DNA of 64,000 bases from Amanita rubescens (lineage: Eukaryota; Basidiomycota; Agaricomycetes; Agaricales; Amanitaceae), in the NCBI GenBank assembly GCA_015039365.1, contig WION01000001.1, positions 1 to 64,000 on the forward strand. The letters are read 5' to 3'. Within the stretch, counting starts at the first letter, position 1. Each line of letters starts with the position of its first letter. This document shows, one piece after another, positions 29,544 to 36,808 of the stretch. The notes beneath the pieces are model-generated. The model was not told the DNA's origin. It saw only the letters and a program-made list of their open reading frames with translations, and did no database searches. The position numbers were made by a program, and so were the translations under genes.

Positions 29544-32500
29544 ATGCCCTCCCTAGGCAACCTCCTAGCACAAGCATTAAAGAAGACAGGCATTTCTGGT
29601 GAACCTCGTACGTCCAAGATGCATCACAACTTGATCAATACTGATAGATATTATCTGACAGGCATTGCTGGTGTAACTAGTACGTCACAAGATGGATCAC
29701 AACTGGATCAATGCTCATATATAGTTTATAACCTGTGCAGATGTAGATGATGCCAAACGGGTTACACTGCGCAGGGAGCAATACAAATGCCCTTATTTCC
29801 GTATTCTTGTCATGGGAAGAGCTAATGCAGGCAAGACAACAATTCTGGAGAAGGTTTGTGGGGTAGCAAGAGGAACACAGCCAATCATCATATATGATAT
29901 GAGTAGTAAGTCATTCATTGATGCACAATCCATTTTTTCATCCCAACTGTCTCTTAGATGAAGAGATCAATCCTAATGAAACCCATATGATACCATCAAT
30001 TGAGGTGAGTTGAATAATTAAACATGGATTGCTTGCTGATTTGCATTAAATTGTAAGAGAGGCATACATGACATTGAGCATCAGATGACATACAAGGGAT
30101 GCAATTTCATCTTCCATGATTCTCAAGGTTTTGAAGTCTGGTGCAAGGGATGAGTTAGAGATTGTTCAGAACTTCATTGCAAAGCGATCTGCCTGCAGCT
30201 CAGTTAAAGGATCAGTTGCATGCAATTTGGTATCCAGTTTGCATTATACTTTATGTATATGAATAATTGATTTGAATTTTCATAGGTACTGTATACCTAT
30301 GGACAGTGCTCGCCCTGTCCTGCCTACAGAACTAGAGTTTTTTGATAAAGGAACAGGGAAAGGCAAGTCCTGAATCCAACCAATATTATTGATGAAATAC
30401 AGTACATTGATGAGTGAATATCATCTCTGCAGTTCCTTTGGTGGTTGTATTCACCAAATTTGATGGTCAAATAATTCAAGAAGGTGGAAAATTAGATGAT
30501 ATAGAGGAGGATGGAGTTAAGTGGGATATGGCCAAGAAGAATGCTGAAATCACATTTCAAAGAGTTTATCTTCCTAAAATCTTTGATACTAAACATCCTC
30601 CAAGAGCATATGTACGATTGGAAGGTAGGATGGTACAATTTACCACTTTAAACTTGGAATAATATTCTAATAGATATGGACCTGCCAGAGAAGAACTGTC
30701 CTGAACTGACTGAGAAGACTGCTGATGCAATTGATGATTCTAGTCTACAAGAACTGTTTGTCTTGACTCAAAGGAACAATATTGGTCTTTGTGTTAAAGC
30801 TGGACTTCGGTGAGTATCACAATAGACTGCTCACTTCAGATATGAATTTTGCAGACATATCTTGTATCCAAAGGGAACTTCTGAAATCCCACTGGAAATC
30901 TCATTTATTGCAATCCTCAGCAAGTTTCCACATTATTGGGTAAATGCTTGAGCAAACTTACATGACAGAAAGCTGAGTTGAAAACAGGTTGGCAGGGAAG
31001 TGAGTGTATTTGCTTATTAACAGTAATGGCATTTTTGAAAAATATTCAAGGAAAATGTCAGTGCAATAATTTACATTCCTTTGCTAATATTTAATCTGAA
31101 CAAAATGATGATCAGGATGTCTGTTGCACTTTATTTTTCACAAAGTCCTGCATTCACAATACAATGTTACCAAGAAACACAATGAAGTTGATGTGAGTGG
31201 TGACACAGCCATGTTTTTGCAAGTAGATTTCTAATACCTCAAACAATAGTGGGCAAGTGATTCTGAAATAATCATAGTGTAGATTCAATATCCAACTGAT
31301 GCCATACTAGTTTGTGAGTGATGCTGAACATTTTGAGCCTGAGAGTCTAACAATAAAATGATAGGAAGTGAGTGATACAGTGTGCCTTCTCTGAAAGGTA
31401 GTCCTCTCATGTCTTATGATAAACAGAGTGTAAGTTACATTTTTTGGAGAAACAGTTGAATTATATCAAGTTATCACATGACCAATAGGCAGTAAGCAAT
31501 AACACTGAGGAAATTGAGTTATGTGACATTTAGCTTATGCCTCACAGGATGTGAGTGGCACAATCATATTCTTGATGACAAGCAATTTTATCTCATCCCA
31601 TGACTAACAGAATGTGTGTGACATTTATTGCTTGATGCTAGTCCAGATCTCACACCAATAAACAGGCTGTAAGTAACAGTCTCTGACTCTGTGCTGAGTA
31701 ATCTTGAACCTCACACCATGGCTAACAGGCAGTCAGTAGCTCTGCACTCAATTCTTACAGTACCATCATCTTGTTTTGTTCACAGGCAGTAAGTGATGTT
31801 GCAAGTTATCCACATGAATTTCTCAGAATTGTATAACTGGCAGAAAGTGAGGTGCAATGTATATGTATACCTCTCTACTTAATTTCATCATGGCCAACAG
31901 GAAGTAAGTTATGTTGAACTTCTTGTTTAATAACTTCCCCAACATATGCAATCCAACAGAGAGTAAGCAGTTGCATCATTTCATGTCGAGCTACATCAGA
32001 TCTGTTACTGCCAGCAAGTATGTGGCATTGCTTTGATTCTAGAAAAACTCATTGCATGTCATCTTATGCCTAACAGTATGTGAGTAATGTGCAGCCTGTC
32101 ATAGCTATTACATCTCATACAACCGACAGTATGTAAGTGACACTGCAATTTCTCATGAGTAGCATCACCACATCTCATTCATACCAACCAACTTGAACAG
32201 GATGTCAGTGCTTTCTCCAGCTGTTCCATACATTTCTCATGCCATGACCAACAGGATGTGAGCAAGATACTTCTTAAGTTCTATGTAGTTTCATCACACC
32301 TTGTCTTGTGATTAACAGGGGGCAAGTGGCACCACTTTTTTTCAGGTGGATTCATCAGATCACCTCCAACAGGTTGTGAGTGAGACTGCATTTGCTCAAG
32401 AAGTCTGATAACTTTCATGACATGTCCAGCATGTGAGTGTTGCTTCATCTTTTACCATGTGGTTTCAGAGTCATATGTATGTATCTCATAAATAATAGAG

Positions 32501-34498
32501 CTGTGAGTCACTCTATATTTCCTTTGCTGGGCAGCTAGTCACATTCCATGTAGGCAGTGAGTAATCCTCTTTTCTTTCCTTCTTTTCCATGCAGTCTCAC
32601 TGCATCATACCACTCACCAGGGAGTGAGTGACCTGGCATAACTTTTCCTCAAAAAGTTTTCTCATCACATCTGATGAACAGTATGTGAGTGCCACCTTCA
32701 TTTTCTCTTTCAGACAGCCTCTTTATATCTTTGCTATGATCATAGGGGGTATGTAACACTAGAGCCTATTCTTTTCTGGGCAATCTCATCATGTTCCTTA
32801 TGATAAACAGTATGTGAGTGACACTGCACTTTTTCTTCACAATGTGTTCTTATCATATCACATACCATCACCAACAGTATGTAAGTAACATTGCATTTTT
32901 TCTTTGCTGGGTGGTTTCATCATATCACATGCAGGGAGTGAGTGGTTTTTTTTCTTTTTCTTCATATCACATCTCATCATATGGGCTGACAGGGGGTAAG
33001 TCATGCCACCTTTCCCCCTCTGCCAGGTGCTCTCATCATGTGTTGAACAGGAGGTAGGTGGCATTGCACTTATTTTGCTAGGTAGTCCATTGATCACATG
33101 AGCAATAGAAAGTAAGGGGCACTTCTTTCTAAAAAATGTTATCACTCATCTCATAACCTGCAGATTGTGAGTCTTGCTGACTTTTCCACCAAGGCAGTTT
33201 CATTGATCCCATGACAAATAGAGTGTGAGAGACTGTCTGTTTCCCTTTCACAGGCAGGCTGAACACATACATATTGTCCTATAACTGACAGGAAGTAAGT
33301 GTCACATAATTATTTTTGTTAAAGGTCCCATGACACCTGATCCCATGATGAACAGAAGGTGAGTGACACTGACACTTTCAACCACACAGCCCTATCATGC
33401 CTTATCTCACAACAGGAGGTGAGTATCATTTTGATTTGCCATCACCAGGCATCATCTTATGTATCTCATGGCCAACAGAGAGTTAGTTATTCTTCCTCTC
33501 AGAATATATTAGCACATCTCAGTGATCTCATATCATGTTCAACAGGATGTAAGTGATGCATCATATTCCCCCAAATAATCACATGTCATATTCATGCCCA
33601 AATAGAAGGTGAGTGGATTTTCACATTTATTTCAAGCAGTCATACCACATTATGGACCATAGAGAGTGAGTGCTACTATTACACCAGGCAGCCTCATCTC
33701 AACCACTCCCACGGCTAATAGAAAGTGAGTACAAGTACAAAACTTTTTTTGGGAAGTAGTCATCCTGATCCTTGTATGAACCACAGGATGTGAGTGATAC
33801 TCTTGTCATCTGTGAGGTAGCCTGCAACAACTTGTGGTCAACAGTTTGTAAGTTACACTGTATGGTCTAAACCCATTTTGTCTCATGCTTTCTTCTCTTA
33901 TCATTTAGGTTGTGAGTGACACCAAAGCATTTGCCACCCTGCTATAAACATGTTATTTGCTTGACCAATAGGAAGTTAGTGACATTGAACTTTCCTTTGC
34001 AAAATTTATTCACTTATGAATACAGAGAGTGGGTGGAATTAACATTTGTCCCAACATCTAACATCCATTTATGAATTTGGCAGGAAGTGAGTGAACATCC
34101 ATTTTTTTCCTATGCTCAATTTACAATCTGATCCATCTTTACATACAGATTGTAAGATGAGCTTCTTGGATTTCCTTCTTGCTGAAAACTGTGTTTTCTA
34201 GGTAAGTGATGGCCATGCATACATTATCAATGGACATGCTAATTGCATTCAGCTTGTATGTCTTCTACTTTGAACTTGATAGTTTCCCTGTTCCCATTTT
34301 TTCAATCAGCCATGAACTTCTCTCATTGTTTGAAGCAACAAAATTCACTGTGTTTTCAGCAACTGTAAGGACTTTGATCTTACCTGTTTGACATTAGAAT
34401 TGGCCATTGATGCCCCTTTCCTCCTTAACCAGGCTATGGAATGTCAGCTTGTAGTTGGTAATGATGCACCCCACGCTGTTACCTTCTTTGAAAGCTAA
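29544..34498 (+). CDS. P-loop GTPase-like protein encoded by about 63 exons, most of them 3 nt
   Basis: Ordinary exons: 29544-29598, 29662-29670, 29741-29905, 29958-30004, 30058-30229, 30286-30362, 30433-30624, 30674-30809, 30855-30939, 30996-30999 (4 nt) and 31116-31192. Then come the micro-exons of 31250-34255, then 34310-34364 and 34433-34498 (TAA). Visible motifs are the P-loop GRANAGKTT, IFHDSQGFE (G3-like), QLHAIWYCIPMD, VVVFTKFD (G4-like), HPPRAYVRLE and FPHYW. These match a GTPase-like family expanded in Agaricomycetes. After the array the frame reads HELLSLFEATKFTVFSAT and ends AVTFFES. Total is about 428 residues if two apparent extra bases (near 30146 and 30210) are errors or decay. 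The function of the family is not known to me. Confidence 0.7.
29591..29740 (+). repeat. Tandemly duplicated intron with 9-nt exon
   Basis: The exon end GCATTTCTG plus its intron (to 29661) and the 9-nt exon GCATTGCTG (29662-29670) plus its intron (to 29740) are similar to each other. Shared intron words include GTACGTC, AAGATG, ATCACAACT and GATCAAT. The unit intron + mini-exon was duplicated once here. Confidence 0.65.
31193..34309 (+). other. Array of 50 micro-exons (49 of 3 nt, one of 2 nt) separated by 50-68 nt introns
   Basis: Exon starts (3 nt each): 31250, 31311, 31365, 31427, 31489, 31548, 31611, 31666, 31729, 31786, 31844, 31901, 31960, 32015, 32077, 32130, 32201, 32255, 32319, 32373, 32430, then CT at 32501-32502, then 32554, 32621, 32682, 32746, 32811, 32878, 32935, 32993, 33051, 33109, 33164, 33222, 33292, 33356, 33416, 33479, 33546, 33606, 33663, 33722, 33787, 33845, 33909, 33972, 34026, 34084, 34149 and 34253. 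Each follows CAG or TAG and precedes GTRAGT or a close variant; two donors are GCAAGT. Concatenated they give 149 nt. With the preceding GAT and following C they read openly: WFESADNAAAKERQ first, then LQDMGIMEGRKLVK and REIREKILLKEKFF. No splice evidence exists beyond the sequence itself. Confidence 0.75.
34194..34210 (+). other. Zero-length exon (recursive-type splice site)
   Basis: TTTTCTAG is directly followed by GTAAGTGAT at 34202, an acceptor abutting a perfect donor. It splits the 34152-34252 interval into 50 and 51 nt, the size of the other array introns. It would be a position where the array unit carries no codon. Confidence 0.55.
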
Positions 34499-35560
34499 AA
34501 TTTTAAAGCAATCATTATAATTGCAAAACTTATCATTTTGGACTAAAGAAGAATCCATCTACTAAATCAATCACTGCTGGGGTATCACATCAGGAAATGC
34601 AGCCATTTGAGCAATCAATCATACAGGGTTTTGACCAGTTCAAAAGAGAATGGTTATGCAAACAAAGTGAAAGTTTGCATTATCCCAGAATCTTTGCCTT
34701 CTCGGGATGAAGGAAATACATTACTTGCACATTCTTGTATAACCAGATTGAACATATCTGAAGGTATGCTTTATCAACAATTTACTCTGTATTTTGGTCC
34801 ATGTCCATGTAGCTAAAATTTACTCTAGCACCAGGGAAACTTACACCCAATTCTCCCACCAGTTCCTGTCACATTATAGATATCAACTTATGCCACTTCA
34901 TTTCCTTTACTATGCCTTCCTTTCAATGTGTATCAGCACCTCCTTGAACCTCCTTCTGCTTAACTGTAGTCTGTGTCTCCAGTGTTCAATTTGACAGATC
35001 ATTTTCTGTTTTCCCTTATGAAATTTAGCTAGAGTGTGTACAAATTGCCAATATTGTTGAAGCTGAAATGTAAGATGTTCCTGATCTTATTATACTGTTA
35101 ATGAAACAGGTAACTATGCATCCACCCTGCAATCTACTACATGGTACAAATCCTTCACTTTTCTAGATCCAGTAGTCCTAGTCATAATTATAAACCTAGT
35201 GTTGGCAACCACTTTCCAAGCCCCAGCTGCAACTTCCTCAACTGCTCCGCAAGATGTTCATGATAAAAATCTGGCACTGCCCCCTCATGGAGCCAGCAGG
35301 TTGCACAACAAGTGAGAACAGAAATCATTATCAACACAAAGTAGTAGCTGAGTAAACTATAGCACGACATCATCAGTTCGTACCAAACATATCAGCACTG
35401 CAAAGTGTACATTCTGTACAGTGAAGGAATAATCATAACACATTTTTATATTACAGCCTTGATTTCTGCTGAATGAGACCCAGTGTATCAAAAATGGCAA
35501 GTCCTAATTCATCGGGCTTCACTTGTGGAATCTATCGTTTCATTAGCAAAGCTTGGTATT
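34499..35560. other. AT-rich 3' part of the island with possible exons
   Basis: After the TAA at 34496 the AT-rich composition continues to about 35450. A plus-strand frame near 34597-34720 reads EMQPFEQSIIQGFDQFKREW and ends at a TGA. Another candidate exon near 35030-35071 (after AATTTAG, before GTAAGA) reads LECVQIANIVEAE. They may be 3' exons of an alternative form or of a second gene. I could not assemble them. Confidence 0.3.
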
Positions 35561-36808
35561 TCAACGTATTCCACCCCAACTGACCAAGTGCCCGGCATCA
35601 TCAATGTATTTCGTGCTCGCATAACGCCTGCCAGAGGCAGGATCGAACAGTGCATCTTGCATATCAGCAGAACTTATAGAAAAAATGTCAAGAACGACGA
35701 AAGGCATAGCGAAACAACAATATAACTTGCATAACATCATGTTTCCGCCCGAGAATCAGATGCACGGGTAAGAACGTGCACACATAATTGAGCATTTCAA
35801 CAGGTTCCGTCGCCCCTTCCGCGTCTCGGTACATTGCCTGAAAACCAGCTGGTGTCAGACATTATCGAACAAAATGAGGCTAACTAACAGCTTCCTGCTC
35901 GCGCGTGCAAGCCAAAGTTACTCCATTGAATGGTGCGTCGGCCCATTTGCCAGCCGGATGAGGTCGAAGACCGTGTTCCTTCCATGTCAACGTTAGCACT
36001 AGGCCGGCAGAGCGCAAACACTGGAACAGCTCACGACATATAAATTAGTTACTCGCACGTCCCAGTCGCATCGCTTCATCTTGAAGTGGCGTCTTGCTTC
36101 GTCCCTCGACCGCCAGACGTCGTGGCGCAGGTAAGCAGTTTGGACCATTTCCCGCCTGAGTGTAGCCACGTGTGATGAGCCCTTGGGGACTCACCATAGG
36201 CTCGACTATCACAAGGGATATAAATGGTATCCGCGGTTCGTATCGATGCGTGAGGAGTCTGTGTACAAGTGACAATCAGATATCACCATCCGAATGACCA
36301 AGTTGGAGAACGAACAAAGCGTTAGCCCCCAACGAATGACCTATTCCGACCAGCCTACGACTTGCAAAGTCTACTTTGGCGCCCTCGTTGATACCGGCAG
36401 TAAGGAAGCTATGGACAGCGCAGGCGTATTTTTGGCATGTGACTGATACCAATATCAGGTCAATTTCGACGTTAAACAGACAGAAGGAATCGACCTACAG
36501 ACTTCTGCATGCTCGTCCTGGCGTAGGACGTGTTCGTTGTACAACACAGCTTCACCGTGGTTCGGGCTGTCGAGCGCCCATGCTTCACGCAGTTTTACAC
36601 CAGAGCCAGGTCGGCACATTAGTTTAAAGACTTGATCGAGCGTTGGCTCCCATGTTTCTTTGTGAAAGCTCGTCGAATGGAGCAAGATCAAGGTGAGTGC
36701 ATCAGGGTCGCCTTGATTAGCTACAAATTCGGGCAGCCAGTAACGTTTGGCTGTCGTATGGAATGGGCATCCTGCTCGTGGTGGGCAAACAACGCGTTCT
36801 GTCAGCAT
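35561..36808 (-). CDS. Alpha/beta hydrolase-fold protein
   Basis: Starts at ATG 36808. Exon 1 (36808-36495) gives LILLHSTSFHKETWEP and AWALDSPNHGEA, the usual first strands and DSPNHG loop. After an 86-nt intron, SFLTAGINEGAKVDF leads to the nucleophile elbow GIGHSLGAN (catalytic Ser). LVIVEPMVSP and DEARRHFKMKRCDWDVRV follow, then EHGLRPHPAGKW and NGVTLACTREQEA. The last intron uses a GC donor. The final exon (35672-35561) holds DPASGRRYAST and the catalytic His in DAGHLV. Exon borders between about 36300 and 36150 are uncertain, and a one-base shift near 36155 is possible. The 3' end is duplicated as a remnant at 26.86 kb. Substrate unknown. Confidence 0.7.

What the first reader, a model, noticed from the sequence alone, without database searches (positions are those of the whole stretch)
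31193..34309. A run of 50 micro-exons, 49 of them exactly 3 nt: a gene spelled one codon-length at a time
Every 53-71 nt an acceptor (CAG or TAG) is followed by exactly three variable bases and then a donor (GTRAGT or close). All intervening introns are 50-68 nt, the normal size for this genome. Flanks are conserved and the three bases are not. None of the in-phase codons is a stop. The concatenated 149 nt plus one base join a GAT-ending exon at 31192 to an exon at 34310 in frame, then reach a TAA at 34496. The deduced stretch is non-repetitive and charged, like a real helix. I know of micro-exons and recursive splice sites, but not of a run of this kind.
Basis: partly seen in the sequence, partly recalled or inferred. 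Interest (0 to 1): 0.97.

Follow-up and report, generated by a model that had tools for sequence, protein, structure and literature searches.

The report
Mushroom genes spelled codon by codon
In the mushroom Amanita rubescens, a gene for a GTPase-like protein holds a run of 49 predicted exons of about one codon each, separated by 50-68-base introns, and their joined codons match 41 of 49 residues of an uninterrupted relative in a public database, so the cell likely splices this stretch together one amino acid at a time; thousands of such paired sites in the same genome point to a gene architecture for which our literature searches found no precedent.

Summary
The window is from Amanita rubescens; the gene is a P-loop GTPase-like gene starting at 29544. 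From 31250 to 34151 lie 49 predicted single-codon exons (unit 22 reads 4 nt in the assembly); GAT (31116) and CTT (34253) make 51, with a zero-length exon at 34202. Decisive: two intron-free database ORFs, taken to be transcripts. P0046 (478 codons, 1,486-nt contig) matches the joined window codons at 41/49 residues without a gap (shuffles: max 14). P0122 threads onto another A. rubescens array (C328) in 54 exons, 40 of them 3 nt, 224/230 codons identical; its one array mismatch equals the other haplotype's codon. Genome-wide, paired 3-nt sites number 5,614 (control 0) against 8 for 4 nt (control 33). Of 802 triplets in 17 arrays none is a stop (50.6 expected). Four further, unrelated intron families form such arrays, one behind an NPHP3_N/NACHT-like ORF. 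In the youngest arrays introns are nearly identical (L034: 2 differences in 3,240 nt) while triplets vary (10 kinds before the same intron). Splicing is strongly supported; how arrays arise and what the protein does are inferred. Ten literature searches listed nothing comparable.

The parts
29544..30999 (+). 5' part of host gene: ordinary exons 29544-29607, 29662-29679, 29741-29905, 29958-30004, 30058-30229, 30286-30362, 30433-30624, 30674-30809, 30855-30939 and a 12-nt exon 30988-30999; encodes the GTPase-like domain (RANAGKTT, FHDSQGFE, VFTKFD)
   Evidence: threading of P0046 and P0090; motifs
31051..31056 (+). 6-nt exon GAAAAT (less certain)
   Evidence: threading of P0046
31116..31118 (+). 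single-codon exon GAT (D), upstream of the main run
31175..31192 (+). 18-nt exon KHNEVD (P0046: KHNEID)
31250..34151 (+). main array: 49 predicted single-codon exons separated by introns of 50-68 nt
31250..31252 (+). micro-exon 1 TGG W
31311..31313 (+). micro-exon 2 TTT F
31365..31367 (+). micro-exon 3 GAA E
31427..31429 (+). micro-exon 4 AGT S
31489..31491 (+). micro-exon 5 GCA A
31548..31550 (+). micro-exon 6 GAT D
31611..31613 (+). micro-exon 7 AAT N
31666..31668 (+). micro-exon 8 GCT A
31729..31731 (+). micro-exon 9 GCA A
31786..31788 (+). micro-exon 10 GCA A
31844..31846 (+). micro-exon 11 AAA K
31901..31903 (+). micro-exon 12 GAA E
31960..31962 (+). micro-exon 13 AGA R
32015..32017 (+). 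micro-exon 14 CAA Q
32077..32079 (+). micro-exon 15 TAT Y
32130..32132 (+). micro-exon 16 TAT Y
32201..32203 (+). micro-exon 17 GAT D
32255..32257 (+). micro-exon 18 GAT D
32319..32321 (+). micro-exon 19 GGG G
32373..32375 (+). micro-exon 20 GTT V
32430..32432 (+). micro-exon 21 CAT H
32499..32502 (+). micro-exon 22, reads 4 nt (AGCT) in the assembly; P0046 has S here; skipped by the threading
32554..32556 (+). micro-exon 23 GCA A
32621..32623 (+). micro-exon 24 GGA G
32682..32684 (+). micro-exon 25 TAT Y
32746..32748 (+). micro-exon 26 GGG G
32811..32813 (+). micro-exon 27 TAT Y
32878..32880 (+). micro-exon 28 TAT Y
32935..32937 (+). micro-exon 29 GGA G
32993..32995 (+). micro-exon 30 GGG G
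33051..33053 (+). micro-exon 31 GAG E
33109..33111 (+). micro-exon 32 AAA K
33164..33166 (+). micro-exon 33 ATT I
33222..33224 (+). micro-exon 34 AGT S
33292..33294 (+). micro-exon 35 GAA E
33356..33358 (+). micro-exon 36 AAG K
33416..33418 (+). micro-exon 37 GAG E
33479..33481 (+). micro-exon 38 AGA R
33546..33548 (+). micro-exon 39 GAT D
33606..33608 (+). micro-exon 40 AAG K
33663..33665 (+). micro-exon 41 AGA R
33722..33724 (+). micro-exon 42 AAA K
33787..33789 (+). micro-exon 43 GAT D
33845..33847 (+). micro-exon 44 TTT F
33909..33911 (+). micro-exon 45 GTT V
33972..33974 (+). micro-exon 46 GAA E
34026..34028 (+). micro-exon 47 AGA R
34084..34086 (+). micro-exon 48 GAA E
34149..34151 (+). 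micro-exon 49 ATT I
34199..34207 (+). zero-length exon / recursive splice site tag|gtaagt (junction before 34202); 18 ATT + zero-exon pairs in the genome
34253..34255 (+). single-codon exon CTT (L), after the zero-length exon
34310..34758 (+). 3' exons 34310-34364, 34433-34457 and one from 34509 on (its alignment has several frame and codon skips, end uncertain): C-terminal helical part
   Evidence: threading of P0046; AF2 model of P0046

Best explanation
A segment of about 50 residues of an Amanita rubescens GTPase-like protein is most likely spliced together from exons of a single codon each, so that every splicing step would add one amino acid. Shown directly: the array itself, the 3-nt rule, the lack of stop triplets, and the codon-by-codon match to intron-free ORFs in the database. 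Inferred: those ORFs come from spliced mRNA; the introns (50-68 nt here) are recognised by intron definition; they are removed one after another, since a 3-nt exon can hardly hold two spliceosomes at once, each ligation placing the next GTRAGT at the end of the growing 5' exon (a recursive-splicing-like ratchet). Inferred for evolution: arrays grow by gain of codon-plus-intron units, only frame-keeping units persist, introns are homogenised within an array, and the codons diversify quickly, giving a hypervariable insert between the GTPase domain and the C-terminal helices.
For: P0046, an uninterrupted 478-codon ORF on a 1,486-nt JGI contig, has 49 residues where the window has 49 single-codon exons: 41/49 identical, no gap; 10,000 shuffles mean 4.5, max 14. 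P0122 (285 codons, 1,099-nt contig) threads onto C328 (L029) in 54 exons, 40 of 3 nt, with 6-, 9-, 12-, 15-nt and zero-length exons too; 224 of 230 codons identical. Array residues identical 51/52, 200 shuffles max 25; for window/P0046 the same threading gives 40/49, max 23. P0122's single array mismatch (Q/R) equals the codon of the C23 haplotype. Genome: 5,614 paired 3-nt sites, control 0; 4-nt pairs 8, control 33; 6-then-3 pairs 61, control 1, against 4-then-3 pairs 22, control 4; first triplet TAA or TGA in 4 pairs (TAG not searched); 0 stops in 802 triplets, 50.6 expected from base frequencies. A GTG unit of about 66 nt is present in one haplotype only.
Against: The DNA contigs behind P0046 and P0122 were not seen; that they are cDNA is inferred from ORF length against contig length. 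P0046 is a homologue, not the window allele, so its own gene could lack these introns. Of 12 transcript-like proteins threaded on 14 loci, only P0046 (window) and P0122 (C328 and its allele C23) matched closely, and no transcript-like protein exact over the window array was found. The assembled window gene has several one-base frame shifts, unit 22 is 4 nt, and no second haplotype copy was found, so this copy could be damaged. Some young arrays contain 2- or 4-nt exons (17 of 209) and one a TAA triplet (C605), so not every array need be functional. In C23/C328 the micro-exons (5 of 156 sites) are not clearly more conserved than introns (107 of 2,237). The order of splicing was not tested.
Confidence: 0.92

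Rival explanations
1. The region is one long non-coding intron or an intronic minisatellite; the AG-NNN-GT sites are recursive splice sites and the triplets are never kept in mRNA.
For: A zero-length (ratchet-like) site exists at 34202, and the unit is a tandem DNA repeat in young arrays.
Against: Codon-by-codon match to P0046 and P0122; 0 stops of 802; 3-nt specificity.
Confidence: 0.02
2. The transcript-like ORFs come from relatives whose exon is contiguous; the window array is an intron-invaded, perhaps dead copy whose codons are relics.
For: P0046 is a homologue, not identical; the assembled window gene has frame shifts.
Against: P0122 matches an A. rubescens locus at 224/230 codons and its array mismatch is explained by the other haplotype; splice sites in C23/C328 differ less (1.5-2.3%) than intron interiors (4.8%); no stops among 802 triplets.
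Confidence: 0.05
3. Origin by introner-like insertion: copies of a mobile intron inserted between codons of an older contiguous exon, rather than growth by codon-plus-intron units.
For: The same 62-nt intron consensus recurs at three paralogous loci (C1:104k, C1:137k, C207/C278) and at C13; in most arrays adjacent units are no more alike than distant ones, and some introns differing by only 2-3% carry unrelated codons; 790 matches to its first 21 nt plus CAACAG.
Against: Insertion alone does not explain why the spacing is 3 nt almost everywhere (802/850); array-specific intron variants (53 nt in L032, 60-68 nt in L033-L036) and repeated units or blocks in several arrays point to local tandem growth.
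Confidence: 0.3
4. Assembly artefact: collapsed or invented repeats.
For: Frame shifts in the window gene; 2- and 4-nt exons in near-identical arrays.
Against: In the window array the introns are diverged, so it is not a repeat artefact; other arrays are found on separate contigs of both haplotypes (three pairs fetched and aligned).
Confidence: 0.02

Closest known systems
Micro-exons and micro-exon genes (schistosome MEGs, aphid bicycle and megacycle genes, plant micro-exons)
   Same: Runs of very small exons; rapidly evolving proteins; easily missed by annotation. PMC9168663 (passages read): an aphid gene with more than 100 micro-exons. PMC8831610 (passages read): 1-nt micro-exons in plants.
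   Different: Here nearly every exon of the run is exactly one codon, the introns form near-identical families, and the arrays recur across one genome; the passages I read describe no run of single-codon exons. MEG details beyond these passages are recalled.
3-nt and 1-nt exons (Drosophila homothorax 3-bp exon, Arabidopsis APC11 1-nt exon)
   Same: Exons this small can be spliced; PMC4674806 (passages read) proposes intron definition combined with recursive splicing; PMC5639578 (passage read) notes two 3-nt exons in a fungal lipS gene; PMC7392893 (abstract start in a listing) reports the homothorax exon.
   Different: One or two such exons, not tens in a row.
Recursive splicing / ratchet points, stwintrons (search listings only)
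   Same: Stepwise removal regenerating a 5' splice site; one zero-length exon at 34202.
   Different: The array exons are 3 nt and add residues; introns are short.
Introner-like elements of fungi (PMC4457414, abstract and outline read)
   Same: Near-identical spliceosomal introns multiplied in one genome.
   Different: Here packed in tandem with 3-nt spacing, with several unrelated families.
Immunity-related GTPases (IRG: IIGP1/Irga6, Irgb6, Irgb10, GM4951; that GM4951 is an IRG is recalled)
   Same: Most of the best Foldseek matches of the P0046 model, from E 1.6e-5; dynamin-like BDLP and IniA are also among the top rows.
   Different: TM-score by target only 0.36-0.44 for the IRG rows, 9-13% identity; no Pfam family for P0046.

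Membership tests
Micro-exon gene | many internal exons of a few nt that are included in mRNA | tested here: met
   mRNA status of the ORFs inferred
Micro-exon gene | exon lengths are multiples of 3 | tested here: met
   of 850 called exons 802 are 3 nt, 23 are 6-15 nt, 4 zero, 21 not multiples (17 of those 21 in the youngest arrays)
Micro-exon gene (schistosome MEG / bicycle type) | encodes a secreted protein with signal peptide (recalled) | not tested
   the host is a GTPase-like protein; no signal-peptide tool used
Recursive splicing (zero-length exon) | juxtaposed acceptor and donor with no exon between | tested here: inconclusive
   met at 34202; not met by the 49 array units, which keep 3 nt
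Stwintron | internal intron interrupts a splice motif of an external intron | tested here: not met
   each array intron carries its own donor and acceptor
Introner-like element | near-identical introns at many positions | tested here: met
Introner-like element | dispersed in unrelated genes as single insertions | tested here: inconclusive
Immunity-related GTPase (IRG) | GTPase fold with IRG-type helical domain | tested here: inconclusive
   top hits but low TM; Pfam none for P0046; some relatives carry PF01926 in the precomputed column

The most novel reading that the evidence does not exclude
Amanita rubescens has a codon-cassette system: tandem arrays in which the intron is copied almost perfectly while the single-codon exon between copies is hypervariable. 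Arrays in GTPase genes, and behind at least one NACHT-like (NLR-like) gene, would thereby keep changing one recognition segment residue by residue, a built-in diversity generator for fungal self/non-self or immune proteins, read out by splicing one amino acid at a time.
Probability: 0.35. Interest if true: 0.98.

Novelty: categorically new. Interest (0 to 1): 0.96.

Why it matters
If true, a eukaryotic gene can be built of dozens of exons of one codon, testing the limits of splice-site recognition and annotation; the public model of the window gene stops before the array (P0121, 328 aa). It makes the old question of how introns arise and multiply directly testable, because arrays of different ages, and a haplotype difference of one unit, sit in one genome. 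The contrast between near-identical introns and variable codons points to an unknown copying or diversification process, in genes that resemble immune GTPases and, in one case, NLRs.

Tried and rejected
Rejected: a chance run; a general tolerance for short exons (4-nt pairs stay below control); non-coding recursive sites only. The count of 3-nt exons found by threading is not evidence in itself: mismatched protein/locus pairs also give many, so identity in the array against shuffled arrays was used.

C90 (L030) was fetched hoping to match P0036, P0044 or P0169; it did not. The third homologue search, for an exact window transcript, found none across the array (26 proteins, best P0169 and P0122). 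Pfam gave no family for P0046, P0122, P0036, P0044. Neighbour and block tests were mixed: excess of identical neighbours in L031, L033, L034, C207 (p 0.018 or less), not in L032, L035, L036, C1:104k; a repeated mixed block beyond shuffles in L032 (p 0.004), borderline in L031 (p 0.058). The allelic partners C278, C124 and C23 were dropped before the stop count. The intron-difference counts use only introns of the commonest length with at most 6 differences (L031 47 of 48, L033 29 of 37, L034 54 of 56, L035 14 of 19, L036 18 of 29; totals), so indel-bearing introns, common in L035 and L036, are left out.

Literature: ten searches of an open-licence library; the listed titles and abstract starts show no run of single-codon exons, but several listings were capped. 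Seen: passages of PMC4674806, PMC5639578, PMC9168663, PMC8831610; abstract and outline of PMC4457414; search listings only for the rest, including PMC7392893 and PMC11121469.


Full report
WHERE IT IS. The window is the start of contig C1 (1,667,397 bases) of a 75.7-Mb assembly. Homology places it in Amanita rubescens: proteins labelled Amanita rubescens come from a contig of exactly that length, and P0121 (F5887DRAFT_912399, 328 aa) is the public model of the window gene. For other arrays, haplotypes lie on separate contigs, so genome counts are not counts of independent loci; for the window gene no second haplotype copy was found.

THE ARRAY. Between 31193 and 34309 an acceptor, three bases and a donor recur at every step. 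Strict sites number 31 in the window, 1.43 expected. One search lists 49 units from TGG at 31250 to ATT at 34151, introns 50-68 nt; unit 22 reads 4 nt in the assembly. Threading adds GAT at 31116, a zero-length exon at 34202 and CTT at 34253. Joined in phase 0 the 49 triplets read WFESADNAAAKERQYYDDGVHSAGYGYYGGEKISEKERDKRKDFVEREI; of the two other phases one has stops and one has none.

IS IT SPLICED? P0046 is an uninterrupted ORF of 478 codons on a contig of 1,486 nt, although the genomic relatives I threaded are cut by many introns, so I take it as RNA (inferred). It carries WFESADDAAGKEREYYDDGIHSGGYGYYGGKKISEKERDHRRDFVEREI, 41 of 49 identical without a gap; 10,000 shuffles reach at most 14. 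With a spliced aligner that may choose any site, the figures are 40 of 49 against at most 23 in 200 shuffles; the aligner leaves out unit 22. Of 14 threaded loci the window fits P0046 best by far, 390 of 458 codons. In the genome-wide protein search, window exons gave the highest identities listed, 86 and 90%, though longer matches at 70% ranked first by E-value.

A SECOND, SAME-SPECIES CASE. P0122 (285 codons, 1,099-nt contig) threads onto C328 in 54 exons: 40 of 3 nt, three of 6, one each of 9, 12 and 15, one of zero length, and seven longer; 224 of 230 codons are identical, one residue is skipped; in the array 51 of 52 against at most 25 in 200 shuffles. The only mismatch in the array is Q for R, and the C23 haplotype has the R codon there. 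This makes A. rubescens itself the likely source. Of 12 transcript-like proteins threaded on 14 loci, only P0046 with the window and P0122 with C328 and C23 matched closely.

THE REST OF THE WINDOW GENE. P0090 equals it at 233 of 233 aligned codons, with the frame of the assembled DNA moving by one at two places; further shifts lie downstream. An intact version of that part therefore exists. No amino-acid difference beside the shifts argues for assembly errors rather than decay, but this is not proven.

GENOME-WIDE. Paired 3-nt sites: 3,008 + 2,606, reversed-pattern control 0. Paired 4-nt sites: 8, control 33. A 6-nt exon before a 3-nt exon: 61, control 1; a 4-nt one: 22, control 4. Pairs whose first triplet is TAA or TGA: 4. 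The conserved start TGG-TTT: 126 matches, of which a few of those listed lie inside arrays; ends with ATT and a zero-length exon: 18. In 17 arrays (three allelic partners dropped) 802 of 850 called exons are 3 nt, 23 are 6-15 nt, 4 zero and 21 not multiples of three; among the 802 there is no stop, 50.6 expected from base frequencies. The third base is C in two of 802.

INTRONS AND CODONS EVOLVE APART. In the allelic pair C23/C328 intron interiors differ at 4.8% (107 of 2,237), micro-exon bases at 3.2% (5 of 156), donors at 1.5%, acceptors at 2.3% and large exons at 2.0%. Among units of one array, introns differ by 20-28% in four young arrays (two of them alleles), 39% in C3 and 52-63% in five older ones (two allelic pairs among them), while codons are near saturation (58-73%) in all ten; in most arrays neighbours are no more alike than distant units, C3 being the clearest exception; some introns 2-3% apart carry unrelated codons. 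In the youngest arrays: L031 has 6 intron differences in 2,914 nt but 33 of 129 codon bases off consensus; L034 2 in 3,240 against 69 of 138, with 10 different triplets, and 6 kinds of exon of other length, before the same exact intron. L033, L035 and L036, each with its own unrelated intron, show the same contrast with fewer units (5, 3 and 5 triplets before the commonest intron). Unit gain is visible: one GTG unit differs between haplotypes C207 and C278 (the alignment beyond it was not examined); L032 repeats blocks. Young arrays also hold 2- and 4-nt exons, 17 of 209; the older set has 4 (1- or 4-nt) of 580, as if selection removed frame breakers later (inferred).

HOST GENES. The window family is GTPase-like: motifs RANAGKTT, FHDSQGFE, VFTKFD and PF01926 in the precomputed column of some relatives, though Pfam gives nothing for P0046 itself. 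The AlphaFold model of P0046 (34 sequences; mean pLDDT 81.5) puts the array-coded residues 327-375 in a low-confidence helix and loop followed by the start of a confident helix, between the GTPase domain and the C-terminal helices. Foldseek's top PDB matches are mostly immunity-related GTPases, E from 1.6e-5, with low TM-scores, beside dynamin-like proteins: a lead, not membership. L031 and L036 carry GTPase-family matches; ORFs upstream of L034 show GTPase motifs by eye; L033 follows an ORF with NPHP3_N (E 4.4e-7) and a sub-threshold NACHT hit (E 0.0016); L035 lies downstream of ORFs with a ULD_2 domain on the same strand. For L033 and L035 it was not shown that array and ORF are one gene.

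MECHANISM. Shown: arrays, the 3-nt rule, absence of stops, codon-by-codon agreement with intron-free ORFs. Inferred: introns are recognised singly and removed in succession, each step extending the 5' exon by one codon. Why introns are kept alike while codons vary is open; candidates are intron-only copying through excised introns, insertion with a 3-nt ruler, filler at duplication joints, and local hypermutation.

NOVELTY. Micro-exon genes, 1- and 3-nt exons, recursive splicing and introner-like elements are known. None of the ten searches listed a run of single-codon exons; the library holds open-licence papers only and several listings were capped.

Noticed in passing
window 29585-29723: Two tandem copies (73-nt period) cover a small exon and its intron near the start of the same gene: exon-plus-intron duplication on a larger scale.
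   Followed up: no
L033 (C321:96501-101500): An array with a 68-nt intron family of its own follows an NPHP3_N/NACHT-like ORF; three consecutive 4-nt exons occur in it.
   Followed up: partly
L034 (C408), L031 (C13): Youngest arrays: introns nearly identical, triplets of many kinds, plus exons of 2 and 4 nt that may be frame breaks or assembly errors.
   Followed up: partly
window 29544-34758: The assembled window gene is out of frame by one at several places although a transcript-like protein (P0090), identical where aligned, has an intact frame over the first two.
   Followed up: partly
P0111, P0117 (JGI proteins, source unknown): E/R/H/N-rich low-complexity stretches sit after the GTPase domain, about where the array lies; similar arrays may exist in other fungi.
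   Followed up: no
P0036 and P0044: Two transcript-like proteins nearly identical over much of their length but different in sequence and length in the array segment.
   Followed up: no
contig C1, 29-138 kb: Five array-bearing GTPase-like paralogues lie within about 110 kb on both strands.
   Followed up: partly
window 30001-36000: GC is 37-41% here against about 47% in most of the window.
   Followed up: no
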